Assembly: GCF_020271745.1 (NCBI RefSeq)
Contig: NZ_CP084296.1
Coordinates: 1,984,001 to 2,048,000, forward strand
Source of the DNA: Providencia alcalifaciens
GTDB taxonomy: Bacteria; Pseudomonadota; Gammaproteobacteria; Enterobacterales; Enterobacteriaceae
Direction: 5' to 3'
Length of the DNA stretch: 64,000 nucleotides
The position numbers and the translations under genes were made by a program. The stretch's first letter is position 1; every line of letters starts with the position of its first letter. Positions 10,066-64,000 of this stretch are shown piece by piece. The notes under the pieces are model-generated. The model was given only the letters and a program-made list of their open reading frames with translations. It was not told where the DNA came from and did no database searches.

Positions 10066-10277
10066 ACCTTGAGACAGAACGCGCCTTGGTCAGAATCCCA
10101 GTCGCTGGGCGGGTTTGCGCCTACGCTCTTGACCCCCACGAGGTCTGGAAAGGGTACGACAACGCCAAAGAATACGCGGCCTTCGTGACCAAGACGCTGG
10201 TCAACAAGGACGGCGATATTAAGCGCCGGATCATGTCGATGTTTAGCCCAGAGGAACGCCCAGACGACAGGGAGTGA
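10066..10277 (+). pseudogene. C-terminal fragment of unrecognised protein
   Basis: About 70 codons open from the edge of the Tn3-family element to a stop supplied in the first bases of ISCR2 (ggagTGAc). Residues such as ALDPHEVWKGYDN and IKRRIMSMFSPEERP are visible but I do not recognise the family. No start codon with ribosome site is present, so it is a 5'-truncated leftover trapped between two mobile elements. Confidence 0.5.
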
Positions 10278-12117
10278 CGGGCACTGGCTGGCAATGTCTA
10301 GCAACGGCAGGCATTTCGGCTGAGGGTAAAAGAACTTTCCGCTAAGCGATAGACTGTATGTAAACACAGTATTGCAAGGACGCGGAACATGCCTCATGTG
10401 GCGGCCAGGACGGCCAGCCGGGATCGGGATACTGGTCGTTACCAGAGCCACCGACCCGAGCAAACCCTTCTCTATCAGATCGTTGACGAGTATTACCCGG
10501 CATTCGCTGCGCTTATGGCAGAGCAGGGAAAGGAATTGCCGGGCTATGTGCAACGGGAATTTGAAGAATTTCTCCAATGCGGGCGGCTGGAGCATGGCTT
10601 TCTACGGGTTCGCTGCGAGTCTTGCCACGCCGAGCACCTGGTCGCTTTCAGCTGTAAGCGTCGCGGTTTCTGCCCGAGCTGTGGGGCGCGGCGGATGGCC
10701 GAAAGTGCCGCCTTGCTGGTTGATGAAGTACTGCCTGAACAACCCATGCGTCAGTGGGTGTTGAGCTTCCCGTTTCAGCTGCGTTTCCTGTTTGCCAGCC
10801 GGCCCGAGATCATGGGGTGGGTGCTGGGCATCGTTTACCGCGTCATTGCCACGCACCTGGTCAAGAAAGCGGGCCATACCCACCAAGTGGCCAAGACGGG
10901 CGCGGTCACCCTGATCCAGCGTTTTGGATCGGCGCTCAATCTGAATGTTCACTTCCACATGCTGTTTCTCGACGGTGTGTATGTCGAGCAATCCCACGGC
11001 TCAGCGCGTTTCCGCTGGGTCAAGGCGCCGACCAGCCCAGAGCTCACCCAGCTGACGCACACCATCGCCCACCGGGTGGGTCGCTATCTGGAACGGCAAG
11101 GCCTGCTGGAACGGGATGTCGAAAACAGCTATCTGGCCTCGGATGCGGTGGATGACGACCCGATGACACCCCTGCTGGGGCACTCGATCACTTACCGTAT
11201 CGCTGTCGGTTCACAGGCGGGGCGAAAGGTGTTCACTTTGCAAACTCTGCCGACCAGTGGTGATCCGTTCGGTGACGGGATTGGCAAGGTAGCCGGGTCC
11301 AGCCTGCACGCCGGCGTGGCGGCCAGGGCCGATGAACGCAAGAAGCTCGAACGGCTGTGCCGGTACATCAGCCGCCCGGCGGTATCCGAGAAGCGGCTGT
11401 CGTTAACACGAGGCGGCAACGTGCGCTACCAGCTCAAGACGCCGTACCGGGACGGCACCACGCACGTCATTTTCGAACCATTGGATTTCATTGCAAGGCT
11501 GGCCGCCCTGGTACCGAAGCCCAGAGTCAACCTAACCCGCTTCCACGGGGTGTTCGCACCCAACAGTCGGCACCGGGCGTTGGTCACGCCGGCAAAACGG
11601 GGCAGGGGCAACAAGGTCAGGGTGGCTGATGAACCGGCAACACCAGCACAACGGCGAGCGTCGATGACATGGGCGCAACGGCTCAAGCGTGTTTTCAATA
11701 TCGACATCGAGACCTGCAGCGGCTGCGGCGGCGCCATGAAAGTCATCGCCTGCATTGAAGACCCTATAGTGATCAAGCAGATCCTTGATCACCTGAAGCA
11801 CAAAGCCGAAACCAGCGGGACCAGGGCGTTACCCGAAAGCCGGGCGCCACCGGCTGAGCTGCTCCTGGGTCTGTTTGACTGACGAGCCTGAAGGCCAACG
11901 ATACCAATCAAAATGCTGCGTTCACAGCGCCGCGGCAGGGATCCGCCGTGCTGGTTGTCGGAAAAGGAGCCGCTAGTGGGAAAGAGGAGGGTAAATTTTC
12001 AGCGTTGCTGGCTCCCCGTCAGCCGGATTGGGTTGCATCGCAGGGGTGTCGAAAGAGTCAACTGCGGTCCAAAGCTGTTGGACTTGGGTGAAAAGGGCGT
12101 TTATTCTTCCTATACGT
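10274..12117 (+). mobile_element. ISCR2 copy 1
   Basis: 1,844-bp unit shared by all regular copies, from GTGACGGGCACTGGCTGG on the transposase 5' side (terIS end) to TTATTCTTCCTATACGT on the 3' side (oriIS end). The borders were set by where the flanks of different copies diverge. There is no terminal inverted repeat or target duplication, as expected for IS91-like rolling-circle elements. Also called ISVsa3 in the literature. Confidence 0.92.
10389..11882 (+). CDS. rcr2: ISCR2 rolling-circle (HUH) transposase
   Basis: 497 aa, IS91/ISCR family. An N-terminal zinc-binding region (CESCHAEH...CPSCG) is followed by the HUH metal motif NVHFHMLFLDGVY and the catalytic tyrosine region LERLCRYISRPAVSEKRL; a C-terminal Cys cluster ETCSGCGGAMKVIACIEDP closes the protein. 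ATG is preceded by AAGGA. The protein nicks at oriIS 3' of its gene and replicates toward terIS 5' of it; missed termination carries away DNA upstream of the gene. All eight regular copies encode the same protein. Confidence 0.95.
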   Translation: MPHVAARTASRDRDTGRYQSHRPEQTLLYQIVDEYYPAFAALMAEQGKELPGYVQREFEEFLQCGRLEHGFLRVRCESCHAEHLVAFSCKRRGFCPSCGARRMAESAALLVDEVLPEQPMRQWVLSFPFQLRFLFASRPEIMGWVLGIVYRVIATHLVKKAGHTHQVAKTGAVTLIQRFGSALNLNVHFHMLFLDGVYVEQSHGSARFRWVKAPTSPELTQLTHTIAHRVGRYLERQGLLERDVENSYLASDAVDDDPMTPLLGHSITYRIAVGSQAGRKVFTLQTLPTSGDPFGDGIGKVAGSSLHAGVAARADERKKLERLCRYISRPAVSEKRLSLTRGGNVRYQLKTPYRDGTTHVIFEPLDFIARLAALVPKPRVNLTRFHGVFAPNSRHRALVTPAKRGRGNKVRVADEPATPAQRRASMTWAQRLKRVFNIDIETCSGCGGAMKVIACIEDPIVIKQILDHLKHKAETSGTRALPESRAPPAELLLGLFD

Positions 12118-12797
12118 GCCGCGTTCCAGGCGGCGACTATGAGGGCTATGTCGATGCCCATGTGCGCCGGCTGGAGGCGCTACGCCGGGCCGGTATCGTC
12201 GAGCGGATCGACGCCGACCAATGGCGCATCCCCGATGATCTGGTCAGCCGTGCCGCCGCCCATGACGCCGGCCGAGACAGTCAGGCCAGCGTTCGCGTCC
12301 TTTCCCCGGTCGATCTGAACAAACAGATCGGATCGGACGGCGCGACCTGGCTGGACCGGCGGCTGATCCACGGCGAGACGGCCGACCTTGCGCCAACCGG
12401 CTTCGGGCAACAAGTCCGCGAAGCCATGGACCAGCGCCGCGAGCACCATATCGAACAGGGCGACGCCACCCGCAGCCGGGACAGCCGCGTCTTCTACCGG
12501 CGCAACCTTCTCGCCATCCTGCGGGAGCGCGAGGTAGCCGGCGTCGGATCGGATATGGCTTTGAGTAAGGGCCTGCCGTTCCGCGCCGCCACGGACGGCG
12601 AGAGCGTCAGCGGCAAGTTTACCGGAACCGTGCATCTATCGAGCGGCAAGTTCGCCGTGGTCGAGAAATCCCATGAGTTCACCCTTGTCCCGTGGCGGCC
12701 GATCATCGACCGCCAACTCGGCCGCGAGGTTATGGGCATCGTGCAGGGCGGGTCGGTGTCGTGGCAGTTAGGGCGGCAGAGGGGGCTGGAACGCTGA
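12118..12797 (+). pseudogene. Relaxase (VirD2-like, DUF3363) C-terminal fragment
   Basis: About 226 residues in frame with the ISCR2 tail, hence without a start of its own. The sequence GYVDAHVRRLEALRRAGIVER, DLAPTGFGQQVREAMDQRR and VMGIVQGGSVSWQLGRQRG is that of the C-terminal DUF3363 part of VirD2-like relaxases. The nuclease domain is gone. A relaxase remnant directly upstream of floR next to ISCR2 is a well-known arrangement and marks the plasmid origin of the floR block. Confidence 0.8.
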
Positions 12798-12877
12798 GTG
12801 CGCCCATGCCGCATTGCGAAGCAAAAGATAATCTGATAAAATGTAGCAATTCATATTCGTAAGCGTGGAGTAATCAG

Positions 12878-12907
12878 ATGGGAAATTCCAAGTCAGCAGA
12901 CAAGTAA
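12878..12907 (+). CDS. Putative 9-aa leader peptide of floR (MGNSKSADK)
   Basis: ATG to TAA encodes MGNSKSADK, preceded by GTGGAG eight bases upstream. It closely resembles the 9-residue leader of the phenicol exporter gene cmlA (ending KNADK), which controls translation by drug-induced ribosome stalling. Here it lies 112 bp before floR and is followed without gap by a strong hairpin. That it controls floR is inference from the parallel. Confidence 0.6.
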   Translation: MGNSKSADK

Positions 12908-12936
12908 GCCGCAACAACCAGTATTGTTGTTGCGGC
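12908..12936 (+). promoter_or_regulatory. Hairpin after floR leader, possible attenuator
   Basis: Perfect 11-bp stem GCCGCAACAAC (12908-12918) with GTTGTTGCGGC (12926-12936), 7-nt loop, starting at the base after the leader stop. A second pair, AATCAGATG (12872-12880, covering the leader ATG) and CATCTGATT (12955-12963), could enclose it and offers an alternative fold. Such switching structures fit translational attenuation. No poly-T follows the stem, so a plain terminator is less likely. Confidence 0.55.
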
Positions 12937-13019
12937 GCTCTGTAAGGCTAGTCTCATCTGATTGCTGACGAGCAGACGTCGCCCGGTATTCCTTAATCTT
13001 AATCGAGGGTTGATTCGTC

Positions 13020-14291
13020 ATGACCACCACACGCCCCGCGTGGGCCTATACGCTGCCGGCAGCACTGCTGCTGATGGCTCCTTTCGACATCCTCGCTTCA
13101 CTGGCGATGGATATTTATCTCCCTGTCGTTCCAGCGATGCCCGGCATCCTGAACACGACGCCCGCTATGATCCAACTCACGTTGAGCCTCTATATGGTGA
13201 TGCTCGGCGTGGGCCAGGTGATTTTTGGTCCGCTCTCAGACAGAATCGGGCGACGGCCAATTCTACTTGCGGGCGCAACGGCTTTCGTCATTGCGTCTCT
13301 GGGAGCAGCTTGGTCTTCAACTGCACCGGCCTTTGTCGCTTTCCGTCTACTTCAAGCAGTGGGCGCGTCGGCCATGCTGGTGGCGACGTTCGCGACGGTT
13401 CGCGACGTTTATGCCAACCGTCCTGAGGGTGTCGTCATCTACGGCCTTTTCAGTTCGATGCTGGCGTTCGTGCCTGCGCTCGGCCCTATCGCCGGAGCAT
13501 TGATCGGCGAGTTCTTGGGATGGCAGGCGATATTCATTACTTTGGCTATACTGGCGATGCTCGCACTCCTAAATGCGGGTTTCAGGTGGCACGAAACCCG
13601 CCCTCTGGATCAAGTCAAGACGCGCCGATCTGTCTTGCCGATCTTCGCGAGTCCGGCTTTTTGGGTTTACACTGTCGGCTTTAGCGCCGGTATGGGCACC
13701 TTCTTCGTCTTCTTCTCGACGGCTCCCCGTGTGCTCATAGGCCAAGCGGAATATTCCGAGATCGGATTCAGCTTTGCCTTCGCCACTGTCGCGCTTGTAA
13801 TGATCGTGACAACCCGTTTCGCGAAGTCCTTTGTCGCCAGATGGGGCATCGCAGGATGCGTGGCGCGTGGGATGGCGTTGCTTGTTTGCGGAGCGGTCCT
13901 GTTGGGGATCGGCGAACTTTACGGCTCGCCGTCATTCCTCACCTTCATCCTACCGATGTGGGTTGTCGCGGTCGGTATTGTCTTCACGGTGTCCGTTACC
14001 GCGAACGGCGCTTTGGCAGAGTTCGACGACATCGCGGGATCAGCGGTCGCGTTCTACTTCTGCATCCAAAGCCTGATAGTCAGTATCGTCGGGACATTGG
14101 CGGTGACGCTGTTAAACGGCGATACAGCGTGGCCCGTGATTTGTTACGCCACGGCAATGGCAGTGCTGGTGTCGTTGGGGCTGGCGCTCCTTCGATCCCG
14201 TGATGCTGCCACCGAGAAGTCGCCAGTCGTCTACCGACGACTGGTAGCAGGCCCGCTCCGATGCGGCGCACTAACCATCGAAACCTCGTGA
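13020..14291 (+). CDS. floR: FloR chloramphenicol/florfenicol exporter, C-terminally extended variant
   Basis: Major-facilitator drug:H+ antiporter of 12 membrane segments that exports chloramphenicol and florfenicol. Motif A appears as GPLSDRIGRRP after TM2; the N-terminus MTTTRPAWAYTLP is that of FloR. Usual FloR is 404 aa and ends EKSPVV. Here one base is missing at the stop (TCTACCG instead of TCTAACCG), so the frame runs on for 19 residues to 423 aa and overlaps the lysR fragment. The last ~50 usual residues also carry substitutions (CIQSL, AVTLLNGD, LALLRSRDA) compared with the truncated copy at 31 kb. Start ATG follows GAGGGT 10 bases upstream. Likely still functional; the tail effect is unknown. 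Confidence 0.95.
   Translation: MTTTRPAWAYTLPAALLLMAPFDILASLAMDIYLPVVPAMPGILNTTPAMIQLTLSLYMVMLGVGQVIFGPLSDRIGRRPILLAGATAFVIASLGAAWSSTAPAFVAFRLLQAVGASAMLVATFATVRDVYANRPEGVVIYGLFSSMLAFVPALGPIAGALIGEFLGWQAIFITLAILAMLALLNAGFRWHETRPLDQVKTRRSVLPIFASPAFWVYTVGFSAGMGTFFVFFSTAPRVLIGQAEYSEIGFSFAFATVALVMIVTTRFAKSFVARWGIAGCVARGMALLVCGAVLLGIGELYGSPSFLTFILPMWVVAVGIVFTVSVTANGALAEFDDIAGSAVAFYFCIQSLIVSIVGTLAVTLLNGDTAWPVICYATAMAVLVSLGLALLRSRDAATEKSPVVYRRLVAGPLRCGALTIETS
14223..14244 (+). terminator. Hairpin over the former floR stop
   Basis: CCAGTCGTC (14223-14231) pairs with GACGACTGG (14236-14244) around a 4-nt loop that should hold the floR stop; here the loop lacks one base. No clear T-run follows, so termination is uncertain. 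The same hairpin is at 31914-31936 with the normal stop and at 53638-53659 with the deletion. Confidence 0.4.
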
Positions 14292-14566
14292 ATGTCGGTA
14301 TCCTGTCTGGCAGGATACCGCTCATTTCCCTTGTTCAGTTCATCGCCGTCGCCGAGCATCTGAATTTTCGGCATGCGGCCAAGGCACTTGGTATCAGCCA
14401 GTCGAGCGTCAGCGCGCGTGTGAAAGCGCTGGAGGATAACCTTGGTGTCCTGCTATTTGAGCGCCATGCGCGGGGCGTTCGGCTAACAGACGCAGGCAGG
14501 CACTTCATGGAGCGTGTCACGGCGGGTGTCGATCAACTCGATCACGCAGTGAAGACCGCGGAGTGA
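14261..14566 (+). pseudogene. LysR-type regulator, N-terminal fragment
   Basis: About 100 residues with the LysR helix-turn-helix: LVQFIAVAEHLNFRHAAKAL, GISQSSVSARVKALED and LFERHARGVRLTDAG. The effector-binding domain (~200 residues) is removed by ISCR2, whose terIS edge provides the stop (gagTGAc). It follows floR in the common floR-lysR-ISCR2 arrangement. A DNA-binding-only fragment could still bind DNA but is most likely non-functional. Confidence 0.9.
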
Positions 14567-17457: not shown

Positions 17458-17483
17458 TCCTATACGTCAATCAAGGAGGTTTT

Positions 17484-19108
17484 ATGTCCAAATTTTTGCA
17501 GCTTAATCAGTTGTCTTATGGTTTGCCAAATGGCAACGCAGTTTTTTCAGACTTAACTTATACATTCTCTCAGCCAATCACAGCTTTGATTGGGCGAAAT
17601 GGCGTTGGCAAAAGCTTATTGGCACAAATCATGGCGGGGCGATTATTGCCAACGGAAGGCTCATGTATCAATAGTGATTTAGTTTATTACTTATCACAAA
17701 AAGCCCATGAAAAAAGCGCTGAAACCATTGCTGAAGCATTGGGAATTCAATATATATTGAATTCATTGCAACGCATCGAAAATGGTAGTGTTGATCCTGA
17801 TGATTTTGAAACTGTGGGTTCGCGTTGGTGCATTCAGGATGAGGCTCTGAATTTATTGGCTGATCTGTCTTTATCCCATGTTTCGTTAGCAACTGCTATG
17901 CAGCAATTAAGCGGTGGTGAGCAAATGCGTATTCGCATTGCGGCTGCTTTTTTATCACAAGCGCAGATTTTGATTCTAGATGAACCTAGCAACCATTTGG
18001 ATTATCACTATAAACAAGTTTTATGGTCGATGATTCAATCATGGCAAGGGCAGGTGGTCATTATCACCCATGATCGTTATTTGTTGAACCGAGTGAGCGC
18101 CATTGTGGAATTATCTGCTAAAGGCTTAACAGCATACAGCGGTGCTTATCAAGATTATATTGAGCAAAGGGATGCCGAATTAGCTTCTGCTATTCAGCAG
18201 TTGAATGCGGTGAAACAGACAGAGAAAAAGCGCTTGGCAGTTGCACAGCAACAATTAGAACGACAAGCGAAACGATCCTCTCAAGCCAATAAACAACGTG
18301 GTGAGCAAAATCAAGCGAAGATATTGCTAGATCGTCAAAAGAATCGCAGTGAATTAAGTTCAGGCAAAGCCAAACAACAAAGAGATCAGATTGCTGAACA
18401 AGGCAAGCTAGCCATTCAATCTGCAAAAGATCGTCTAGATCAGCAAGAAACAGTTGTGTTACATGGTTATGATGTGGACGCTTTTGTGCCAAAAGTATTG
18501 GCAGAATTGAATCAGCTTACATTGCCACATTTATCTGAGCATTTGCGAGAATTTCATGGGCAGATTGAAAAAGGCGATCGCATTGCTATTGTGGGCAAAA
18601 ATGGCAGTGGCAAATCTGTATTACTGAAAACATTGGCAGGGTTGGTTTCACCCTTACAAGGCGAAGTGAAGCATCATGTGAATTTTGCTTATTTGGATCA
18701 GCAATTGTCTTCATTGGATTTATCACAATCTATTTTGGATCAAATTTCAGATGGGCAAACTAAAGAAAAAATTACAGATTTAAGAATGCAATTGGCACAA
18801 TTGGGTTTGGATAATACAGTGATTAATCAACCCATGAATGCTTTAAGTGGCGGAGAGCAATTGAAAGCTGCTTTGATTCTGTCTTTATATCAAAAAAAGA
18901 ACCTGCACAATTATTGTTATTGGATGAGCCCAATAACCATTTGGATTTGCCATCATTACAAGCATTGGAGCAATTATTGCAGAGTTATCGAGGTGCTTTG
19001 GTGATTGTTGCACATGACCAAGAGTTTTTAGCGAATATTGGTATTACCAAATATTTAGTGGCGACTGAAAGTGGTTGGCAGTGGCAGGAAAAATTCCCAG
19101 CCATGTAA
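17484..19108 (+). pseudogene. ABC-F ATPase, copy 1 with frameshift
   Basis: Same gene as the intact one at 39238, but the A-run at 18892-18898 has seven A instead of five, which shifts the frame near codon 470 and removes the second Walker B (LLLLDEPNNHLD) from the continuous frame; the rest continues in another frame to 19108. Since other homopolymers in this copy are also longer than in the sister copies, the shift may be sequence error. See the copy at 39238 for the domain description. Confidence 0.85.
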
Positions 19109-19132
19109 TGGACAATGCAATAGGTTTAAGCT

Positions 19133-19157
19133 CTATCCCTCCTACTGAGAGGGATAG
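19133..19157. terminator. Shared terminator between convergent ABC-F and acetyltransferase genes
   Basis: Nine-bp stem CTATCCCTC (19133-19141) and GAGGGATAG (19149-19157) with a 7-nt loop, followed by TTTC, in the 70-bp gap between two convergent genes. Confidence 0.7.
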
Positions 19158-19178
19158 TTTCATTGATAATAACAATAA

Positions 19179-19808
19179 TTAAAATGGATAATTTTTCTCA
19201 GCTTCAATCAATGCTTCAATATTATTTTGCGTTAAGAATGGGCGAAGTACCTGAAATTTCTCAGGTGCCCAATCATAAATATGCAATGCTAATAATTGTT
19301 GAATGATTTCTGGTGGAAATCTATATTTCATTAATTGCGCAGGTGATCCACCCACAATGGCATAAGGCTCGACATCTTTTGTCACAATGCTGCCTGCAGC
19401 AATGATTGCACCTTCACCAATTGTAATACCAGGCATAATCATCGCTCGCATGCCTATCCAATCGCCATCGTGAATATGTGTATCACCTTTGCTTTGATAA
19501 GCTTCTTCGATTGTTTCCATAAAAGGATATAAGCTGAACCAATCAGCGCGATGTGTATGATTGCCGCCCATAAGAATCACAGCTTCTGCACCAATGCAGA
19601 CATAATCACCAATGTATAGCTGATCAATATGCCATAAAGGCTCCCACTTTAAGCTTTCTTCATCGCCATATAAATAGCGCACAACAGAAGCTTCAAAGCC
19701 TTGATCCCAGCAATCGCTGTAATAGCTATGTTGACCTTTAATGATAATGTTTGAGTTTTTAACAGTTTCGTGGAGATATTCCACTTTTGACCAATGTTTT
19801 TTTTCCAT
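19179..19808 (-). CDS. CatB-type xenobiotic acetyltransferase
   Basis: 209 aa, left-handed beta-helix (hexapeptide repeat) enzyme of the XAT/CatB class, which acetylates chloramphenicol or related hydroxyl drugs with acetyl-CoA as a trimer. Visible features: SYYSDCWDQGFEASVVRYLYGDEE, LYIGDYVCIGAEAVILMGGNHTHRADW with the His region expected at the active site, hexapeptide runs IHDGDWIGMRAMIMPGITIGEGAIIAAGSIVTKDV and the family signature AIVGGSPAQLMKYRF. Length and signature match CatB. Drug range is inferred. It is divergent from marR over a 230-bp gap and shares low GC with that block. Confidence 0.85.
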   Translation of the reverse strand: MEKKHWSKVEYLHETVKNSNIIIKGQHSYYSDCWDQGFEASVVRYLYGDEESLKWEPLWHIDQLYIGDYVCIGAEAVILMGGNHTHRADWFSLYPFMETIEEAYQSKGDTHIHDGDWIGMRAMIMPGITIGEGAIIAAGSIVTKDVEPYAIVGGSPAQLMKYRFPPEIIQQLLALHIYDWAPEKFQVLRPFLTQNNIEALIEAEKNYPF

Positions 19809-19967
19809 GACAAAGCTCCAAATAAAATGGCAAATACATGGAATGTTTTATCGATTCGATGCACTACATTCCAAGTGCATCAACCACGAGCGATTCTCGG
19901 CTTTTTTTCAGTAAAGGATTATTGATCATTGAGACATTATAAGTATTTATCAAGCTAACTCAAATTT

Positions 19968-20020
19968 ATAGTTAACCAGTTGACAATAATTTAAATCAAG
20001 AATATAGTTAACTGGTAAAC
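19968..20020 (+). promoter_or_regulatory. marR promoter with flanking operator repeats
   Basis: TTGACA (19980-19985), 17-bp spacer, TATAGT (20003-20008): near-consensus sigma-70 promoter 31 bp before marR. Two similar boxes, ATAGTTAACCAGTTGACA (19968-19985) and TATAGTTAACTGGTAAAC (20003-20020), overlap the -35 and -10. Together they are the natural binding sites for autorepression by the MarR protein. Confidence 0.75.
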
Positions 20021-20038
20021 AAAGTTAGGGCGATAATT

Positions 20039-20488
20039 ATGGCAACACAAACAGAAAAAATGTATCGAGCTTTAGTAAAGTTAACGCATGCACAGGAAAT
20101 TCATCGAGAAAAAAAGCGTGAAACTTTATTGAAGGATTTAGGCAATTACACATTGACACAATTGCATATCTTGAGCTGTATTCAGCAGCATGATGCTGTG
20201 AATAATAAAGTGCTCAGCGATGCTTTGGCATTAACAAAAGCAGCAGTTTCAAAGGCTGTGAATAAATTATTGAAGGATGAATTGATCACAACATATCAAG
20301 TTGAGGATAACCAAAAGTCGATCTTTTATCAGTTAACGAAAGAAGGTGAGCATATTGCTGATATTCATCATGTATTGCATGAGCAAGCCAAAGCAAATTA
20401 CTTGAATTTCTTAGCAACAATGGATGATGAAACATTGGCTAAAGCCCAGCTGTTCTTGGAAGCTTTAACAAATTACTTAGAAGAATAA
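20039..20488 (+). CDS. MarR-family transcriptional repressor
   Basis: 149 aa winged-helix regulator. The core reads TLTQLHILSCIQQHD, VLSDALALTKAAVSKAVNKL (recognition helix) and the wing ELITTYQVEDNQKSIFYQLT, flanked by dimerisation helices. Such proteins are released from DNA by small aromatic ligands. It sits under a strong promoter with paired operator boxes and its stop overlaps the next small frame, so it is likely autoregulated and may control the divergent acetyltransferase as well. Confidence 0.9.
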   Translation: MATQTEKMYRALVKLTHAQEIHREKKRETLLKDLGNYTLTQLHILSCIQQHDAVNNKVLSDALALTKAAVSKAVNKLLKDELITTYQVEDNQKSIFYQLTKEGEHIADIHHVLHEQAKANYLNFLATMDDETLAKAQLFLEALTNYLEE

Positions 20489-20508
20489 TGAAAAAAGGAG
20501 ATCAAAAC

Positions 20509-20898: not shown

Positions 20899-20968
20899 TC
20901 CCAAAATTAAAATCATTGCGCTATAATCGAGCATCAAATTAAAAAGATGTAGCAAAAGTGAGATCATC

Positions 20969-21334: not shown

Positions 21335-21370
21335 ATGATATTGTTATTACCTCAATCAAGGATCAAAAAA

Positions 21371-22592: not shown

Positions 22593-22759
22593 TATTATCG
22601 CCACTTGCATACGCCGTAAAATGGCGCATTTATCCGCTCAAAATAAATTTTTTTACAAGAAATTTCTGAGCATGGTATTTTTGATGGTATTGTGAATATG
22701 CTTCTTTGTAACTGTTTGAAAATAAATAGAAATATGCACTCATTTACAATCGAGTGGGA
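22593..22759. other. AT-rich spacer before variant ISCR, no gene seen
   Basis: No coding frame supported. It ends with CGAGTGGGAGTGAC at the ISCR border, the same border sequence that elsewhere is the natural end of guaA. Confidence 0.5.
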
Positions 22760-53706: not shown

Positions 53707-53981
53707 ATGTCGGTATCCTGTCTGGCAGGATACCGCTCATTTCCCTTGTTCAGTTCATCGCCGTCGCCGAGCATCTGAATTTTCGGCATGCGGCCAAGGC
53801 ACTTGGTATCAGCCAGTCGAGCGTCAGCGCGCGTGTGAAAGCGCTGGAGGATAACCTTGGTGTCCTGCTATTTGAGCGCCATGCGCGGGGCGTTCGGCTA
53901 ACAGACGCAGGCAGGCACTTCATGGAGCGTGTCACGGCGGGTGTCGATCAACTCGATCACGCAGTGAAGACCGCGGAGTGA
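53676..53981 (+). pseudogene. LysR-type N-terminal fragment, third copy
   Basis: As at 14261, overlapping the extended floR end. Confidence 0.9.
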
Positions 53982-55824
53982 CGGGCACTGGCTGGCAATG
54001 TCTAGCAACGGCAGGCATTTCGGCTGAGGGTAAAAGAACTTTCCGCTAAGCGATAGACTGTATGTAAACACAGTATTGCAAGGACGCGGAACATGCCTCA
54101 TGTGGCGGCCAGGACGGCCAGCCGGGATCGGGATACTGGTCGTTACCAGAGCCACCGACCCGAGCAAACCCTTCTCTATCAGATCGTTGACGAGTATTAC
54201 CCGGCATTCGCTGCGCTTATGGCAGAGCAGGGAAAGGAATTGCCGGGCTATGTGCAACGGGAATTTGAAGAATTTCTCCAATGCGGGCGGCTGGAGCATG
54301 GCTTTCTACGGGTTCGCTGCGAGTCTTGCCACGCCGAGCACCTGGTCGCTTTCAGCTGTAAGCGTCGCGGTTTCTGCCCGAGCTGTGGGGCGCGGCGGAT
54401 GGCCGAAAGTGCCGCCTTGCTGGTTGATGAAGTACTGCCTGAACAACCCATGCGTCAGTGGGTGTTGAGCTTCCCGTTTCAGCTGCGTTTCCTGTTTGCC
54501 AGCCGGCCCGAGATCATGGGGTGGGTGCTGGGCATCGTTTACCGCGTCATTGCCACGCACCTGGTCAAGAAAGCGGGCCATACCCACCAAGTGGCCAAGA
54601 CGGGCGCGGTCACCCTGATCCAGCGTTTTGGATCGGCGCTCAATCTGAATGTTCACTTCCACATGCTGTTTCTCGACGGTGTGTATGTCGAGCAATCCCA
54701 CGGCTCAGCGCGTTTCCGCTGGGTCAAGGCGCCGACCAGCCCAGAGCTCACCCAGCTGACGCACACCATCGCCCACCGGGTGGGTCGCTATCTGGAACGG
54801 CAAGGCCTGCTGGAACGGGATGTCGAAAACAGCTATCTGGCCTCGGATGCGGTGGATGACGACCCGATGACACCCCTGCTGGGGCACTCGATCACTTACC
54901 GTATCGCTGTCGGTTCACAGGCGGGGCGAAAGGTGTTCACTTTGCAAACTCTGCCGACCAGTGGTGATCCGTTCGGTGACGGGATTGGCAAGGTAGCCGG
55001 GTCCAGCCTGCACGCCGGCGTGGCGGCCAGGGCCGATGAACGCAAGAAGCTCGAACGGCTGTGCCGGTACATCAGCCGCCCGGCGGTATCCGAGAAGCGG
55101 CTGTCGTTAACACGAGGCGGCAACGTGCGCTACCAGCTCAAGACGCCGTACCGGGACGGCACCACGCACGTCATTTTCGAACCATTGGATTTCATTGCAA
55201 GGCTGGCCGCCCTGGTACCGAAGCCCAGAGTCAACCTAACCCGCTTCCACGGGGTGTTCGCACCCAACAGTCGGCACCGGGCGTTGGTCACGCCGGCAAA
55301 ACGGGGCAGGGGCAACAAGGTCAGGGTGGCTGATGAACCGGCAACACCAGCACAACGGCGAGCGTCGATGACATGGGCGCAACGGCTCAAGCGTGTTTTC
55401 AATATCGACATCGAGACCTGCAGCGGCTGCGGCGGCGCCATGAAAGTCATCGCCTGCATTGAAGACCCTATAGTGATCAAGCAGATCCTTGATCACCTGA
55501 AGCACAAAGCCGAAACCAGCGGGACCAGGGCGTTACCCGAAAGCCGGGCGCCACCGGCTGAGCTGCTCCTGGGTCTGTTTGACTGAGACGAGGCGGTAGC
55601 AGTACAATGATACCAATCAAAATGCTGCGCTCCACAGCGCCAGGCGTGGCAGGGATCCGCCGTGCTGGATTTGGCCGGAAAAGGAGCCGCTAGTGGGAAA
55701 GAGAGAGTAAATCAGCGCTGCATGGCGTCGCCGGACGGTTGCATCGCAGGGAGTGTCGAAAGAGTCAACTGCGGTCCAAAGCTGTTGGACTTGGGTGAAA
55801 AGGGCGTTTATTCTTCCTATACGT
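53978..55824 (+). mobile_element. ISCR2 copy 9, 3' tail scarred
   Basis: Gene and 5' side regular. From the transposase stop to about 55755 the tail has many indels compared with all other copies; the last ~65 bp to TATACGT are normal. Confidence 0.88.
54093..55586 (+). CDS. rcr2: ISCR2 transposase, copy 9
   Basis: 497 aa, unchanged; damage begins directly after its stop codon. Confidence 0.95.
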   Translation: MPHVAARTASRDRDTGRYQSHRPEQTLLYQIVDEYYPAFAALMAEQGKELPGYVQREFEEFLQCGRLEHGFLRVRCESCHAEHLVAFSCKRRGFCPSCGARRMAESAALLVDEVLPEQPMRQWVLSFPFQLRFLFASRPEIMGWVLGIVYRVIATHLVKKAGHTHQVAKTGAVTLIQRFGSALNLNVHFHMLFLDGVYVEQSHGSARFRWVKAPTSPELTQLTHTIAHRVGRYLERQGLLERDVENSYLASDAVDDDPMTPLLGHSITYRIAVGSQAGRKVFTLQTLPTSGDPFGDGIGKVAGSSLHAGVAARADERKKLERLCRYISRPAVSEKRLSLTRGGNVRYQLKTPYRDGTTHVIFEPLDFIARLAALVPKPRVNLTRFHGVFAPNSRHRALVTPAKRGRGNKVRVADEPATPAQRRASMTWAQRLKRVFNIDIETCSGCGGAMKVIACIEDPIVIKQILDHLKHKAETSGTRALPESRAPPAELLLGLFD

Positions 55825-55825
55825 T

Positions 55826-56005
55826 GTTCAGAATAACATTGTTCCGCCAACAATCAATTCGGTAGATATTGAACCTGAATATAGGGATATATTTAACTTG
55901 ACGTTACACCAATCACAACAACGGCAAGTGAATTACGCAATGAGTAATACTTTTGGTTTTGGCGGACACATTGCCACAAGTATTTTTAAAAAATATGCTG
56001 AATAG
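55826..56005 (+). pseudogene. fabF: FabF C-terminal remnant, fourth copy
   Basis: As at 24614. Confidence 0.7.
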
Positions 56006-56159
56006 AGAGTAGGTGCTAACTTCGGTTTGCTCGTGTTGGCGCTAAATCGAAAGTTCAAGTATCCCAACATGTTCCTTCGTATAGAAGTTAAAAGTTGGCA
56101 ATTATCGTAGAACAACCTACAGACAACACCAATATGTAACCGATAAATAATTACAAAAT

Positions 56160-57697
<1,538 letters not shown>

Positions 57698-57714
57698 AAC
57701 AGAAAGGCGAGGAA

Positions 57715-58575
57715 ATGAAAGAGAAAATAGTTAAAAAAAACGGAATAAGACTTTTTACCGAAAGTTTTGGATGTGAAAAAGATCCGGCAATACTCTTGAT
57801 TGCGGGAGCAACGGTATCCATGTTGTATTGGGATGCTGAATTTTGCCAGAAACTATCTGAAAAGGGATTTTTTGTTATTCGCTACGACAATAGGGACGTA
57901 GGAAAATCTACTAATTACGAACCGGGTTCAACCCCCTATGATATTGTTGACTTAACCCATGATGCTATTTCAATTTTGGACGGCTATAAAATAGTCAAAG
58001 CCAATTTTGTGGGAATTTCACTGGGCGGACTGATTTCTCAAATAGCATCAATAAAATATGCCGACAGGGTAAGTTCAATAACACTAATCTCATCAGGTCC
58101 TTGGGGCGACTCAGACCCCACAATTCCTGAAATGGATACGCGTATTTTAGATTTTCACGGAAAAGCTGAAACCGTAGATTGGACAAATGAAGACAGTGTG
58201 GCAAATTATTTAATTCAAGGTGCTGAATTGATGAGCGGCAGGAAACAATTTGACAAACAAAGAAGTGAAAAACTGATTAGAGCCGAATTTAAAAGAGCTA
58301 ATAACTATATAAGTATGTTCAATCATGCGGCACTGCAAGGTGGTGAAGAATACTGGAACAGATTGAGCGAAATCAATCAACCAACCTTAATTGTACACGG
58401 AACGGACGATAAAATATGGCATTTTAAGAATTCAGCAGTTTTACTTGAAAAGATAAACGGCTCAAAACTAATAACGCTTGATGGAACCGGACACGAACTA
58501 CATTTCGAAGATTGGAATAAAATTATTGATGGAATAACGCAACATACAACAAATAACAAAAGAATGAACAAATAG
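57715..58575 (+). CDS. estT: EstT-like macrolide esterase, fourth copy
   Basis: Same product as at 26503. Confidence 0.88.
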   Translation: MKEKIVKKNGIRLFTESFGCEKDPAILLIAGATVSMLYWDAEFCQKLSEKGFFVIRYDNRDVGKSTNYEPGSTPYDIVDLTHDAISILDGYKIVKANFVGISLGGLISQIASIKYADRVSSITLISSGPWGDSDPTIPEMDTRILDFHGKAETVDWTNEDSVANYLIQGAELMSGRKQFDKQRSEKLIRAEFKRANNYISMFNHAALQGGEEYWNRLSEINQPTLIVHGTDDKIWHFKNSAVLLEKINGSKLITLDGTGHELHFEDWNKIIDGITQHTTNNKRMNK

Positions 58576-58631
58576 GGTATTATGTATTTCCAAATCAACG
58601 GTTTAGAGATTGAAGCTAATATCAATGTGTT

Positions 58632-59108
58632 ATGACGCTCAAGCTGGTGGAGCCGCTGCGCGAGCTGTTTAAAGATGAGGTGCGCAAGATCGGTATGGAG
58701 TTAGGTCTGCCCTACGACATGGTTTACCGTCATCCCTTCCCTGGCCCTGGCTTGGGTGTGCGTATTCTTGGCGAAGTAAAAAAAGAATATGCCGACAGGT
58801 TGCGCTTGGCTGATGCCATCTTTATCGAAGAGCTGTATGCCGCTGACCTGTATCACAAAACCAGCCAAGCCTTCGCTGTATTCTTGCCAGTGAAGTCGGT
58901 TGGCGTAGTGGGCGATGCCCGCCGCTATGAGTATGTGGTGGCATTGCGCGCAGTAGAAACTATCGATTTTATGACAGCGCGCTGGGCACACTTGCCGTAT
59001 GAGTTTTTAGAAACGGTTTCTAGCCGCATCATTAATGAGATTCCCGGTATTTCGCGGGTAACCTACGATGTTTCCTCAAAGCCGCCGGCAACTATTGAGT
59101 GGGAGTGA
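58632..59108 (+). pseudogene. guaA: GuaA C-terminal fragment, fourth copy
   Basis: Same fragment and junction as at 27420. Confidence 0.92.
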
Positions 59109-60948
59109 CGGGCACTGGCTGGCAATGTCTAGCAACGGCAGGCATTTCGGCTGAGGGTAAAAGAACTTTCCGCTAAGCGATAGACTGTATGTAAACACAG
59201 TATTGCAAGGACGCGGAACATGCCTCATGTGGCGGCCAGGACGGCCAGCCGGGATCGGGATACTGGTCGTTACCAGAGCCACCGACCCGAGCAAACCCTT
59301 CTCTATCAGATCGTTGACGAGTATTACCCGGCATTCGCTGCGCTTATGGCAGAGCAGGGAAAGGAATTGCCGGGCTATGTGCAACGGGAATTTGAAGAAT
59401 TTCTCCAATGCGGGCGGCTGGAGCATGGCTTTCTACGGGTTCGCTGCGAGTCTTGCCACGCCGAGCACCTGGTCGCTTTCAGCTGTAAGCGTCGCGGTTT
59501 CTGCCCGAGCTGTGGGGCGCGGCGGATGGCCGAAAGTGCCGCCTTGCTGGTTGATGAAGTACTGCCTGAACAACCCATGCGTCAGTGGGTGTTGAGCTTC
59601 CCGTTTCAGCTGCGTTTCCTGTTTGCCAGCCGGCCCGAGATCATGGGGTGGGTGCTGGGCATCGTTTACCGCGTCATTGCCACGCACCTGGTCAAGAAAG
59701 CGGGCCATACCCACCAAGTGGCCAAGACGGGCGCGGTCACCCTGATCCAGCGTTTTGGATCGGCGCTCAATCTGAATGTTCACTTCCACATGCTGTTTCT
59801 CGACGGTGTGTATGTCGAGCAATCCCACGGCTCAGCGCGTTTCCGCTGGGTCAAGGCGCCGACCAGCCCAGAGCTCACCCAGCTGACGCACACCATCGCC
59901 CACCGGGTGGGTCGCTATCTGGAACGGCAAGGCCTGCTGGAACGGGATGTCGAAAACAGCTATCTGGCCTCGGATGCGGTGGATGACGACCCGATGACAC
60001 CCCTGCTGGGGCACTCGATCACTTACCGTATCGCTGTCGGTTCACAGGCGGGGCGAAAGGTGTTCACTTTGCAAACTCTGCCGACCAGTGGTGATCCGTT
60101 CGGTGACGGGATTGGCAAGGTAGCCGGGTCCAGCCTGCACGCCGGCGTGGCGGCCAGGGCCGATGAACGCAAGAAGCTCGAACGGCTGTGCCGGTACATC
60201 AGCCGCCCGGCGGTATCCGAGAAGCGGCTGTCGTTAACACGAGGCGGCAACGTGCGCTACCAGCTCAAGACGCCGTACCGGGACGGCACCACGCACGTCA
60301 TTTTCGAACCATTGGATTTCATTGCAAGGCTGGCCGCCCTGGTACCGAAGCCCAGAGTCAACCTAACCCGCTTCCACGGGGTGTTCGCACCCAACAGTCG
60401 GCACCGGGCGTTGGTCACGCCGGCAAAACGGGGCAGGGGCAACAAGGTCAGGGTGGCTGATGAACCGGCAACACCAGCACAACGGCGAGCGTCGATGACA
60501 TGGGCGCAACGGCTCAAGCGTGTTTTCAATATCGACATCGAGACCTGCAGCGGCTGCGGCGGCGCCATGAAAGTCATCGCCTGCATTGAAGACCCTATAG
60601 TGATCAAGCAGATCCTTGATCACCTGAAGCACAAAGCCGAAACCAGCGGGACCAGGGCGTTACCCGAAAGCCGGGCGCCACCGGCTGAGCTGCTCCTGGG
60701 TCTGTTTGACTGACGAGCCTGAAGGCCAACGATACCAATCAAAATGCTGCGTTCACAGCGCCGCGGCAGGGATCCGCCGTGCTGGTTGTCGGAAAAGGAG
60801 CCGCTAGTGGGAAAGAGGAGGGTAAATTTTCAGCGTTGCTGGCTCCCCGTCAGCCGGATTGGGTTGCATCGCAGGGGTGTCGAAAGAGTCAACTGCGGTC
60901 CAAAGCTGTTGGACTTGGGTGAAAAGGGCGTTTATTCTTCCTATACGT
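59105..60948 (+). mobile_element. ISCR2 copy 10
   Basis: Regular 1,844-bp copy leading into the third low-GC block. Confidence 0.92.
59220..60713 (+). CDS. rcr2: ISCR2 transposase, copy 10
   Basis: 497 aa, unchanged. Confidence 0.95.
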   Translation: MPHVAARTASRDRDTGRYQSHRPEQTLLYQIVDEYYPAFAALMAEQGKELPGYVQREFEEFLQCGRLEHGFLRVRCESCHAEHLVAFSCKRRGFCPSCGARRMAESAALLVDEVLPEQPMRQWVLSFPFQLRFLFASRPEIMGWVLGIVYRVIATHLVKKAGHTHQVAKTGAVTLIQRFGSALNLNVHFHMLFLDGVYVEQSHGSARFRWVKAPTSPELTQLTHTIAHRVGRYLERQGLLERDVENSYLASDAVDDDPMTPLLGHSITYRIAVGSQAGRKVFTLQTLPTSGDPFGDGIGKVAGSSLHAGVAARADERKKLERLCRYISRPAVSEKRLSLTRGGNVRYQLKTPYRDGTTHVIFEPLDFIARLAALVPKPRVNLTRFHGVFAPNSRHRALVTPAKRGRGNKVRVADEPATPAQRRASMTWAQRLKRVFNIDIETCSGCGGAMKVIACIEDPIVIKQILDHLKHKAETSGTRALPESRAPPAELLLGLFD

Positions 60949-60964
60949 CAATCAAGGAGGTTTT

Positions 60965-62587
60965 ATGTCCAAATTTTTGCAGCTTAATCAGTTGTCTTAT
61001 GGTTTGCCAAATGGCAACGCAGTTTTTTCAGACTTAACTTATACATTCTCTCAGCCAATCACAGCTTTGATTGGGCGAAATGGCGTTGGCAAAAGCTTAT
61101 TGGCACAAATCATGGCGGGGCGATTATTGCCAACGGAAGGCTCATGTATCAATAGTGATTTAGTTTATTACTTATCACAAAAAGCCCATGAAAAAAGCGC
61201 TGAAACCATTGCTGAAGCATTGGGAATTCAATATATATTGAATTCATTGCAACGCATCGAAAATGGTAGTGTTGATCCTGATGATTTTGAAACTGTGGGT
61301 TCGCGTTGGTGCATTCAGGATGAGGCTCTGAATTTATTGGCTGATCTGTCTTTATCCCATGTTTCGTTAGCAACTGCTATGCAGCAATTAAGCGGTGGTG
61401 AGCAAATGCGTATTCGCATTGCGGCTGCTTTTTTATCACAAGCGCAGATTTTGATTCTAGATGAACCTAGCAACCATTTGGATTATCACTATAAACAAGT
61501 TTTATGGTCGATGATTCAATCATGGCAAGGGCAGGTGGTCATTATCACCCATGATCGTTATTTGTTGAACCGAGTGAGCGCCATTGTGGAATTATCTGCT
61601 AAAGGCTTAACAGCATACAGCGGTGCTTATCAAGATTATATTGAGCAAAGGGATGCCGAATTAGCTTCTGCTATTCAGCAGTTGAATGCGGTGAAACAGA
61701 CAGAGAAAAAGCGCTTGGCAGTTGCACAGCAACAATTAGAACGACAAGCGAAACGATCCTCTCAAGCCAATAAACAACGTGGTGAGCAAAATCAAGCGAA
61801 GATATTGCTAGATCGTCAAAAGAATCGCAGTGAATTAAGTTCAGGCAAAGCCAAACAACAAAGAGATCAGATTGCTGAACAAGGCAAGCTAGCCATTCAA
61901 TCTGCAAAAGATCGTCTAGATCAGCAAGAAACAGTTGTGTTACATGGTTATGATGTGGACGCTTTTGTGCCAAAAGTATTGGCAGAATTGAATCAGCTTA
62001 CATTGCCACATTTATCTGAGCATTTGCGAGAATTTCATGGGCAGATTGAAAAAGGCGATCGCATTGCTATTGTGGGCAAAAATGGCAGTGGCAAATCTGT
62101 ATTACTGAAAACATTGGCAGGGTTGGTTTCACCCTTACAAGGCGAAGTGAAGCATCATGTGAATTTTGCTTATTTGGATCAGCAATTGTCTTCATTGGAT
62201 TTATCACAATCTATTTTGGATCAAATTTCAGATGGGCAAACTAAAGAAAAAATTACAGATTTAAGAATGCAATTGGCACAATTGGGTTTGGATAATACAG
62301 TGATTAATCAACCCATGAATGCTTTAAGTGGCGGAGAGCAATTGAAAGCTGCTTTGATTCTGTCTTTATATCAAAAAGAACCTGCACAATTATTGTTATT
62401 GGATGAGCCCAATAACCATTTGGATTTGCCATCATTACAAGCATTGGAGCAATTATTGCAGAGTTATCGAGGTGCTTTGGTGATTGTTGCACATGACCAA
62501 GAGTTTTTAGCGAATATTGGTATTACCAAATATTTAGTGGCGACTGAAAGTGGTTGGCAGTGGCAGGAAAAATTCCCAGCCATGTAA
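60965..62587 (+). CDS. ABC-F family ATPase, third copy, intact
   Basis: Same 540-aa product as at 39238; the critical A-run has five A, as in the second copy. Confidence 0.88.
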   Translation: MSKFLQLNQLSYGLPNGNAVFSDLTYTFSQPITALIGRNGVGKSLLAQIMAGRLLPTEGSCINSDLVYYLSQKAHEKSAETIAEALGIQYILNSLQRIENGSVDPDDFETVGSRWCIQDEALNLLADLSLSHVSLATAMQQLSGGEQMRIRIAAAFLSQAQILILDEPSNHLDYHYKQVLWSMIQSWQGQVVIITHDRYLLNRVSAIVELSAKGLTAYSGAYQDYIEQRDAELASAIQQLNAVKQTEKKRLAVAQQQLERQAKRSSQANKQRGEQNQAKILLDRQKNRSELSSGKAKQQRDQIAEQGKLAIQSAKDRLDQQETVVLHGYDVDAFVPKVLAELNQLTLPHLSEHLREFHGQIEKGDRIAIVGKNGSGKSVLLKTLAGLVSPLQGEVKHHVNFAYLDQQLSSLDLSQSILDQISDGQTKEKITDLRMQLAQLGLDNTVINQPMNALSGGEQLKAALILSLYQKEPAQLLLLDEPNNHLDLPSLQALEQLLQSYRGALVIVAHDQEFLANIGITKYLVATESGWQWQEKFPAM

Positions 62588-62611
62588 TGGACAATGCAAT
62601 AGGTTTAAGCT

Positions 62612-62636
62612 CTATCCCTCCTACTGAGAGGGATAG
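62612..62636. terminator. Terminator between ABC-F and acetyltransferase, third copy
   Basis: Same stem as at 19133. Confidence 0.7.
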
Positions 62637-62657
62637 TTTCATTGATAATAACAATAA

Positions 62658-63287
62658 TTAAAATGGATAATTTTTCTCAGCTTCAATCAATGCTTCAATA
62701 TTATTTTGCGTTAAGAATGGGCGAAGTACCTGAAATTTCTCAGGTGCCCAATCATAAATATGCAATGCTAATAATTGTTGAATGATTTCTGGTGGAAATC
62801 TATATTTCATTAATTGCGCAGGTGATCCACCCACAATGGCATAAGGCTCGACATCTTTTGTCACAATGCTGCCTGCAGCAATGATTGCACCTTCACCAAT
62901 TGTAATACCAGGCATAATCATCGCTCGCATGCCTATCCAATCGCCATCGTGAATATGTGTATCACCTTTGCTTTGATAAGCTTCTTCGATTGTTTCCATA
63001 AAAGGATATAAGCTGAACCAATCAGCGCGATGTGTATGATTGCCGCCCATAAGAATCACAGCTTCTGCACCAATGCAGACATAATCACCAATGTATAGCT
63101 GATCAATATGCCATAAAGGCTCCCACTTTAAGCTTTCTTCATCGCCATATAAATAGCGCACAACAGAAGCTTCAAAGCCTTGATCCCAGCAATCGCTGTA
63201 ATAGCTATGTTGACCTTTAATGATAATGTTTGAGTTTTTAACAGTTTCGTGGAGATATTCCACTTTTGACCAATGTTTTTTTTCCAT
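62658..63287 (-). CDS. CatB-type xenobiotic acetyltransferase, third copy
   Basis: Same product as at 19179. Confidence 0.85.
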   Translation of the reverse strand: MEKKHWSKVEYLHETVKNSNIIIKGQHSYYSDCWDQGFEASVVRYLYGDEESLKWEPLWHIDQLYIGDYVCIGAEAVILMGGNHTHRADWFSLYPFMETIEEAYQSKGDTHIHDGDWIGMRAMIMPGITIGEGAIIAAGSIVTKDVEPYAIVGGSPAQLMKYRFPPEIIQQLLALHIYDWAPEKFQVLRPFLTQNNIEALIEAEKNYPF

Positions 63288-63444
63288 GACAAAGCTCCAA
63301 ATAAAATGGCAAATACATGGAATGTTTTATCGATTCGATGCACTACATTCCAAGTGCATCAACCACGAGCGATTCTCGGCTTTTTCAGTAAAGGATTATT
63401 GATCATTGAGACATTATAAGTATTTATCAAGCTAACTCAAATTT

Positions 63445-63497
63445 ATAGTTAACCAGTTGACAATAATTTAAATCAAGAATATAGTTAACTGGTAAAC
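63445..63497 (+). promoter_or_regulatory. marR promoter and operator, third copy
   Basis: TTGACA at 63457 and TATAGT at 63480 with the paired boxes. Confidence 0.75.
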
Positions 63498-63515
63498 AAA
63501 GTTAGGGCGATAATT

Positions 63516-63965
63516 ATGGCAACACAAACAGAAAAAATGTATCGAGCTTTAGTAAAGTTAACGCATGCACAGGAAATTCATCGAGAAAAAAAGCGTGAAA
63601 CTTTATTGAAGGATTTAGGCAATTACACATTGACACAATTGCATATCTTGAGCTGTATTCAGCAGCATGATGCTGTGAATAATAAAGTGCTCAGCGATGC
63701 TTTGGCATTAACAAAAGCAGCAGTTTCAAAGGCTGTGAATAAATTATTGAAGGATGAATTGATCACAACATATCAAGTTGAGGATAACCAAAAGTCGATC
63801 TTTTATCAGTTAACGAAAGAAGGTGAGCATATTGCTGATATTCATCATGTATTGCATGAGCAAGCCAAAGCAAATTACTTGAATTTCTTAGCAACAATGG
63901 ATGATGAAACATTGGCTAAAGCCCAGCTGTTCTTGGAAGCTTTAACAAATTACTTAGAAGAATAA
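63516..63965 (+). CDS. MarR-family repressor, third copy
   Basis: Same product as at 20039. Confidence 0.9.
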   Translation: MATQTEKMYRALVKLTHAQEIHREKKRETLLKDLGNYTLTQLHILSCIQQHDAVNNKVLSDALALTKAAVSKAVNKLLKDELITTYQVEDNQKSIFYQLTKEGEHIADIHHVLHEQAKANYLNFLATMDDETLAKAQLFLEALTNYLEE

Positions 63966-63985
63966 TGAAAAAAGGAGATCAAAAC

Positions 63986-64000
63986 ATGCATAAATATCAG
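63986..64000 (+). CDS. NTF2/SnoaL-like protein, third copy, cut by window end
   Basis: Only ATG and four codons (MHKYQ) are inside the window; the array continues to the right. Confidence 0.6.

What the first reader, a model, noticed from the sequence alone, without database searches (positions are those of the whole stretch)
10274..64000. Ten ISCR2-type elements in one orientation with four tet(X)-estT operons
Eight regular ISCR2 and two hybrid copies, all on the + strand, separate repeated resistance blocks. tet(X) and estT occur four times with no difference seen. Known: ISCR2 forms circles and tandem arrays by rolling-circle transposition and recombination. Inference: copy number, and so tigecycline resistance, may vary between cells and under selection. 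Arrays of this size are unusual.
Basis: partly seen in the sequence, partly recalled or inferred. Interest (0 to 1): 0.8.

Follow-up and report, generated by a model that had tools for sequence, protein, structure and literature searches.

The report
Nested ISCR2 array repeating tet(X6)-estT
A chromosomal mobile element of a bacterium that is probably a Providencia carries, in its assembled sequence, four identical copies of a tigecycline-resistance block between ISCR2 mobile elements, arranged as a repeat inside a larger repeat; arrays of this kind are known, the exact copy number here is doubtful because two stretches look like uncorrected sequencing reads, and extra copies would probably not raise resistance much.

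Summary
The array runs past the window: a third hybrid ends near window-equivalent 68089, then sul2 and a second identical Tn3. It sits in the rumB/umuC region of an SXT/R391-type element in a 4.2-Mb contig, probably of Providencia. Blocks form a nested repeat, B-H-A-I-C-I-A-I, of 21.7 kb. Copies differ mainly in single-base-run lengths, except that C1 is another version of C, and that 51473-52433 and 55585-55752 are indel-rich (76% and 73% of differences; 12% in a truly diverged pair): most likely unpolished long-read sequence. The count of four is therefore provisional. Four copies is uncommon, not unprecedented (up to 7 tet(X) places per E. coli genome). New member of a known kind.

The parts
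1422..2663 (-). tyrosine integrase of the SXT/R391-type element (413 aa)
   Evidence: weak integrase-model hits, below their cut-offs; DNA 100% identical to a CDS annotated tyrosine-type recombinase in E. coli WP4-S18-ESBL-08
4830..6002 (-). umuC/rumB fragment: the gene interrupted by the resistance region
   Evidence: UmuC model 531 bits, profile positions 69-422 matched; the E. coli element has a further umuC piece and umuD on the far side of its resistance genes
6852..10065 (+). Tn3-family transposon, left copy; an identical direct copy lies at window-equivalent 69564-72777
10271..12117 (+). ISCR2 copy I1
12118..14559 (+). block C0: DUF3363/virD2-like gene, floR, lysR
   Evidence: same order in L059
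14560..17467 (+). ISCR2 copy I2, split upstream of its transposase frame by an IS1595-family insertion (about 14657-15693)
17468..22756 (+). block B1: ABC-F, catB-like (-), MarR, SnoaL-like, APH(3')-like, GrpB; the ABC-F and APH(3')-like frames are shorter than in B2 because of run-length differences
22757..24612 (+). hybrid ISCR copy H1; about 79% to ISCR2 in its head, last 772 bp (23841-24612) identical to ISCR2
24613..27889 (+). block A1: ORF 24948-25325 (weakly SnoaL-like, below Pfam's cut-off), tet(X6) 25322-26485, estT 26503-27363, guaA 3' fragment
27890..29736 (+). ISCR2 copy I3
29737..32249 (+). block C1: SDR oxidoreductase, 5'-truncated floR, lysR; same block complete in Acinetobacter records at up to 100%
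32250..34096 (+). ISCR2 copy I4
34097..37373 (+). block A2: tet(X6)-estT-guaA'
37374..39221 (+). ISCR2 copy I5
39222..44502 (+). block B2
44503..46355 (+). hybrid ISCR copy H2
46356..49632 (+). block A3: tet(X6)-estT-guaA'
49633..51472 (+). ISCR2 copy I6; identical to I1 up to 51472, where the error-like stretch begins
51473..52433 (.). error-like stretch in block C2: 35 substitutions, 82 insertions, 29 deletions against I1/C0
51473..53974 (+). block C2: error-like virD2-like region, then floR-lysR identical to C0 from 52434
53975..55824 (+). ISCR2 copy I7, with an error-like stretch at 55585-55752
55825..59101 (+). block A4: tet(X6)-estT-guaA'
59102..60948 (+). ISCR2 copy I8
60949..64000 (+). 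block B3, cut by the window end; continues to 66229 and is followed by hybrid H3 to about 68089

Best explanation
This is the resistance region of an SXT/R391-type mobile element, in which ISCR2 and hybrid ISCR2-type elements in one orientation separate four identical tet(X6)-estT blocks in a nested 21.7-kb repeat that was likely built by homologous recombination between ISCR2 copies, with rolling-circle transposition likely having supplied the single units. Shown: order, orientation, identity and block borders, which fall at the ISCR2 3' end (CTTCCTATACGT) and at its 5' end. Inferred: unequal crossing-over between identical ISCR2 copies (1.85 kb), or between ISCR2 and the 772-bp identical end of the hybrids, duplicates or deletes whole blocks, both single A-ISCR2 units of 5.12 kb and the 21.7-kb unit. 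The two direct Tn3 copies would likewise allow loss of the whole region. The number of units probably differs between cells; effects on tigecycline resistance are predicted to be small.
For: A blocks 4 of 4 identical; B blocks 3 of 3 identical after run-length compression; of the 7 ISCR2 copies without insertion, 4 exactly identical, a fifth differing by one run base, the other two identical up to the error-like stretches. Period 21727-21754 bp measured six ways from A, B and H starts. Each of the 4 A blocks starts with the same bases, whether behind an ISCR2 (2) or a hybrid (2). The stretch 28670-37055, holding C1-I4 and most of A2, matches A. baumannii X4-300 but for one base, so blocks travel together. 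A. variabilis pTB2-2B-tetX carries its own tandem of a unit with several mobile elements (tet(X) CDS 11.81 kb apart) plus a 4.36-kb C1-ISCR2 tandem. Published ISCR2-mediated tet(X4) repeats of 4.6-20 kb (PMC7190383, passages).
Against: C1 and C2 differ, so the second large unit is not a plain copy of the first; exchange of a block or faulty assembly must be added. The two error-like stretches lie in C2 and in the ISCR2 behind it. Lack of divergence among A blocks does not date the amplification: of the first 15 listed of 323 matching plasmid-collection records, from several species, 14 carry A at 99.9-100% and one at 99.8%. No record of that collection holds 80% of the stretch 28008-52000 in one place, so the order is not confirmed by another isolate. 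No circular form, read depth or spanning read was available.
Confidence: 0.62

Rival explanations
1. The array is real but shorter or different: the second large unit (around C2) is partly an assembly product, or a minority arrangement in the sequenced culture taken into the consensus.
For: 51473-52433 has 35 substitutions, 82 insertions and 29 deletions against I1/C0, indel share 0.76; 55585-55752 has 10, 15 and 12, share 0.73; a truly diverged pair (ISCR2 against hybrid head) has 201, 14 and 14, share 0.12. The first stretch lies in the part of C where C1 has no similarity to C0. Other differences among A, B and H copies are run lengths and, in H3, one substitution. PMC7190383 reports that arrays longer than the reads or of mixed length defeat assembly (passage).
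Against: C2 from 52434 on is identical to C0, I6 up to 51472 and I7 up to 55584 are identical to I1, and A, B and H copies on both sides are clean.
Confidence: 0.3
2. The array arose by repeated rolling-circle transposition alone, each ISCR2-block circle inserting next to an existing ISCR2, without general recombination.
For: All borders are ISCR2 ends and all copies share one orientation; a 4.6-kb tet(X4)-ISCR2 circle is described (PMC7190383, passage), and 3 of the 60 listed E. coli tet(X) records are replicons of 4607-4608 bp.
Against: The 21.7-kb period holds four ISCR2-type elements and keeps B with H; recombination explains that in one step. No call shows ISCR2 inserting preferentially beside ISCR2.
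Confidence: 0.15
3. One reading: copy number sets the tigecycline resistance level.
For: Four complete Tet(X) frames over the family cut-off; relative tet(X4) expression rises with tigecycline concentration, and the paper's discussion links copy gain to drug pressure (PMC8694195).
Against: For tet(X4), MIC and absolute expression did not rise significantly with copies (PMC7190383; PMC8694195); several tet(X) variants had no additive effect (PMC7722449). Not tested for tet(X6) copies in any passage read.
Confidence: 0.15

Closest known systems
ISCR2-mediated tet(X4) tandem repeats on E. coli plasmids (PMC7190383, PMC8694195; passages read)
   Same: ISCR2-bounded tandem units, repeats of 4.6-20 kb, copy number differs between molecules; one plasmid with four 7-kb units
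   Different: Here tet(X6) with estT and guaA', in a chromosomal SXT/R391-type element, with two repeat sizes nested and hybrid ISCR copies
tet(X6)- or tet(X)-carrying SXT/R391 elements, e.g. ICEPreChnRF14-2 in Providencia rettgeri (PMC7190383) and ICEPciChn2 in Proteus cibarius (PMC8557919); passages read
   Same: tet(X) with ISCR2 in variable region III / rumB
   Different: No multi-copy array is mentioned in the passages read; ICEPciChn2's region is 30.5 kb
Acinetobacter variabilis pTB2-2B-tetX (NZ_CP130330)
   Same: C1-ISCR2-A-ISCR2 stretch nearly letter for letter; tandem repeats of two sizes
   Different: Plasmid; the 11.8-kb unit pairs tet(X3) with tet(X6)-type; no ABC-F/catB block annotated in bases 1-45000
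IncC plasmids pZA25-tetX-168kb and pZN3-tetX-171kb of Proteus
   Same: hybrid-A-ISCR2 order and a hybrid before the floR block; tet(X6) DNA of pZA25 identical
   Different: Single tet(X6); another ABC-F block, with ABC-F in the opposite orientation
SXT/R391-type element of E. coli WP4-S18-ESBL-08 (NZ_AP022095)
   Same: 100% identical DNA over window 1-10273; Tn3, repA fragment, ISCR2, virD2-like, floR, lysR
   Different: One full ISCR2 annotated in the stretch, no tet(X); a partial IS91-type piece, aph(6)-Id, aph(3'')-Ib and sul2 follow

Membership tests
ISCR2 (IS91-like, common region element) | transposase and element sequence of ISCR2/ISVsa3 | tested here: met
   I3 with flank (26882-29736) is an exact match to pZA25, covering a CDS annotated ISVsa3 family; the counterpart of I1 in L059 is annotated ISCR2
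ISCR2 (IS91-like, common region element) | NCBIfam transposase model over its curated cut-off | tested here: not met
   Best model ISCR_clade_Ia 670.8 bits against cut-off 925; IS91 107.2 against 125. No call shows whether ISCR2 is meant to fall in clade Ia, so this lowers only that label
ISCR2 (IS91-like, common region element) | constant 3' end with the block border right behind it | tested here: met
   10 of 11 copies end in CTTCCTATACGT followed by one of five different starts; the eleventh (I6) runs into the error-like stretch
ISCR2 (IS91-like, common region element) | rolling-circle transposition and circles | not testable with these tools
   no reads or PCR
SXT/R391 element | int, mobI, ParM-like gene and rumB/umuC with resistance insertion | tested here: met
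   (names from the annotation of identical E. coli DNA)
SXT/R391 element | integration in prfC and full transfer gene set | not tested
   the chromosome borders and tra genes were not examined
Tet(X6) | identity to recorded tet(X6) | tested here: met
   4 of 4 copies DNA-identical to the pZA25 gene, which PLSDB lists as tet(X6) 100% by rgi and tet(X5) 98.94% by AMRFinder; Tet(X) model 864 bits over 750
ISCR2-tet(X) tandem array | several head-to-tail units, each bounded by ISCR2 | tested here: met
   in the assembly
ISCR2-tet(X) tandem array | copy number varies between molecules | not testable with these tools
   no reads

The most novel reading that the evidence does not exclude
The element is a two-tier resistance amplifier: blocks are gained, lost and swapped at every ISCR2, so that 5.1-kb tet(X6)-estT units and a 21.7-kb multi-resistance unit change number independently in a chromosomal conjugative element, and the culture that was sequenced was a mixture of arrangements, of which C1 and C2 are two.
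Probability: 0.3. Interest if true: 0.55.

Novelty: new member of a known kind. Interest (0 to 1): 0.33.

Why it matters
It shows a tet(X6) array on a chromosomal SXT/R391-type element, for which the passages read mention no multi-copy array, with blocks shared almost letter for letter with Acinetobacter and Proteus records. It also shows how an assembled array can carry its own warning: indel-rich stretches beside clean copies. Published copy-number data for tet(X4) make the leap from more copies to more resistance doubtful, which leaves open why these arrays persist.

Tried and rejected
Rejected: that C2's virD2-like region is a real divergent homologue (indel share 0.76; against C1 only 9-base word matches, against C0 87.5% over 793 columns with 59 gap positions). 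Rejected: that the hybrid is special to this array; in 4 of the 10 listed E. coli rows the whole hybrid with its GrpB neighbour occurs at 99.2-99.7%, on plasmids. Rejected: Proteus as host; the 14-kb stretch L015:1-14000 left of the element had 4 hits, all Erwinia plasmids, and none to the P. mirabilis chromosomes held in that collection, and the 4.5-kb rRNA stretch matches the one listed Providencia record (P. alcalifaciens) at 96.6% over 69% of the query against P. mirabilis 86.8% over 78%. Providencia is an inference. Led nowhere: the genome-contig scan with Tet(X) gave 39 loci, none that names the host; the genus search found Tet(X) over the cut-off in 1 of 24 genomes, the window's own, with only sub-threshold matches in the other 23. 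Literature: 6 searches were answered; none of the listed titles and abstract starts, and none of the passages read, describes this array in Providencia, but only open-licence papers are held, listings showed at most 20 rows, and no supplement was read. A first count for the C2 stretch had 7 extra inserted bases from a misplaced slice edge, and a draft of this report gave its start as 51467; one search replaces both.
Full report
What is there. The window is bases 1984001-2048000 of a single 4,196,542-base contig. Its first 10,273 bases are 100% identical to a chromosomal element in E. coli WP4-S18-ESBL-08, annotated there with integrase, ParM-like gene, mobI and a umuC fragment, the marks of an SXT/R391 element with its resistance region in rumB (family knowledge; the same site is described for a tet(X) element in PMC8557919, passages read). 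Integration in prfC and the transfer genes were not examined. Host genus is inferred as Providencia from the rRNA stretch.

Array anatomy. From 10271 the order is I1-C0-I2-B1-H1-A1-I3-C1-I4-A2-I5-B2-H2-A3-I6-C2-I7-A4-I8-B3-H3, then sul2 and a second Tn3 copy identical to the left one. I is ISCR2, H a hybrid ISCR; A is a small ORF, tet(X6), estT and a guaA 3' fragment; B is ABC-F, catB-like, MarR, SnoaL-like, APH(3')-like and GrpB; C is a floR block. The third hybrid and the end of the array lie beyond the window. All 11 ISCR-type copies are on the + strand. The large period is 21,727-21,754 bp.

How alike the copies are. A: 4 of 4 identical. B: 3 of 3 identical after collapsing runs of one base; the run-length differences shorten two frames in B1. 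ISCR2: of the 7 copies without insertion, I1, I3, I4 and I8 are identical, I5 differs by one run base, I6 and I7 are identical up to the error-like stretches. H1 and H2 are identical after collapsing runs; H3 differs from them by run lengths and one substitution. C0 and C2 are identical from 52434 of C2 on; C1 is a different version, with an SDR gene and a 5'-truncated floR, 20 mismatches and one gap away over the shared 1291 columns.

Assembly quality. Two stretches stand out. At 51473-52433, C2 differs from the end of I1 plus C0 by 35 substitutions, 82 insertions and 29 deletions; at 55585-55752, I7 differs from I1 by 10, 15 and 12. Indels are 76% and 73% of the differences. The control, ISCR2 against the diverged head of the hybrid, has 201 substitutions and 28 indels, 12%. 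Such a pattern fits uncorrected single-molecule reads better than evolution (inference). The stretches lie in C2 and in the ISCR2 behind it, on which the second 21.7-kb unit hangs. The four-fold count is therefore what the assembly says, not a settled fact. No record of the plasmid collection covers 80% of 28008-52000 in one place, so no second isolate confirms the order.

The hybrid. Its head is about 79% identical to ISCR2, and its last 772 bp are identical. It is not special to this genome: the whole hybrid with GrpB upstream is on E. coli plasmids at 99.2-99.7% (4 of 10 listed rows), and a copy stands beside tet(X6) on Proteus IncC plasmids. Its shared end gives general recombination a place to join hybrids and ISCR2 (inference).

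Where the blocks are known. 323 plasmid-collection records match block A; 22 cover at least 80% of it, and of the first 22 rows 16 are Acinetobacter, 4 Proteus and 2 'uncultured bacterium'. C1 is covered over 80% in 7 of 2263 matching records; the 7 best rows are Acinetobacter. The stretch 28670-37055 matches A. baumannii X4-300 but for one base. Block B is covered over 80% by none of 107 matching records; its ABC-F/catB/MarR part is 91.6% identical to the version in the 12 best listed rows, so B is a less common version.

How unusual. In E. coli, 142 of 5426 genomes have a tet(X) place; median 1, highest 7. The plasmid search lists records with 4 and 5 places for block A, and some tet(X4) records with up to 6, but such counts include other tet(X) variants and partial matches: pTB2-2B-tetX with 4 places has two tet(X6)-type and two tet(X3) genes. 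In the genus, 1 of 24 genomes has Tet(X) over the cut-off.

Mechanism. Block borders at ISCR2 ends fit both rolling-circle units and recombination; the 21.7-kb period with hybrids behind every B fits unequal crossing-over between ISCR2 copies better. C1 against C2 needs one block exchange more, or an assembly fault. None of these steps was observed.

Resistance. For tet(X4), papers report copy gain after passage but no significant change in MIC or absolute expression (PMC7190383; PMC8694195), and no additive effect of several variants in Acinetobacter (PMC7722449). For tet(X6) in this host nothing is measured here.

Verdict. A nested ISCR2 array in the assembly; a known kind, in a less usual place, with a doubtful exact copy number.

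Noticed in passing
6852-10065 and window-equivalent 69564-72777: Two identical Tn3-family copies in the same orientation bracket the whole array (3214 bp each); recombination between them would be expected to remove the region.
   Followed up: partly
43083-43913 (and the counterparts in B1, B3): An APH(3')-like gene (275 bits over the general APH(3') cut-off of 205, below the cut-off of each subtype model listed) sits in block B; best solved structure is an APH(3') at 163 bits. Possibly an unnamed subtype.
   Followed up: partly
27420-27896 and about 44480-44509: The guaA fragment in block A ends in frame seven bases inside ISCR2 (GGAGTGA), and block B runs into the hybrid with letters that, read by eye, spell the same last codons; the ISCR2 5' end may preserve a guaA 3' end.
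   Followed up: no
G000:C1:424046-429193 (L019 9081-14434): A second chromosomal locus with a partial and a full ISCR2 around virD2-like-floR-lysR; 3141 bp of it are identical to window 30959-34099.
   Followed up: partly
L016 4419-19824 (window-equivalent 68419-83824): Beyond the array: sul2, second Tn3, APH(3')-Ia, IS21-family transposase, further Tn3 pieces, tet(A).
   Followed up: partly
14657-15693: IS1595-family insertion, found in ISCR2 copy I2 only among the array copies; a unique anchor for placing reads.
   Followed up: no
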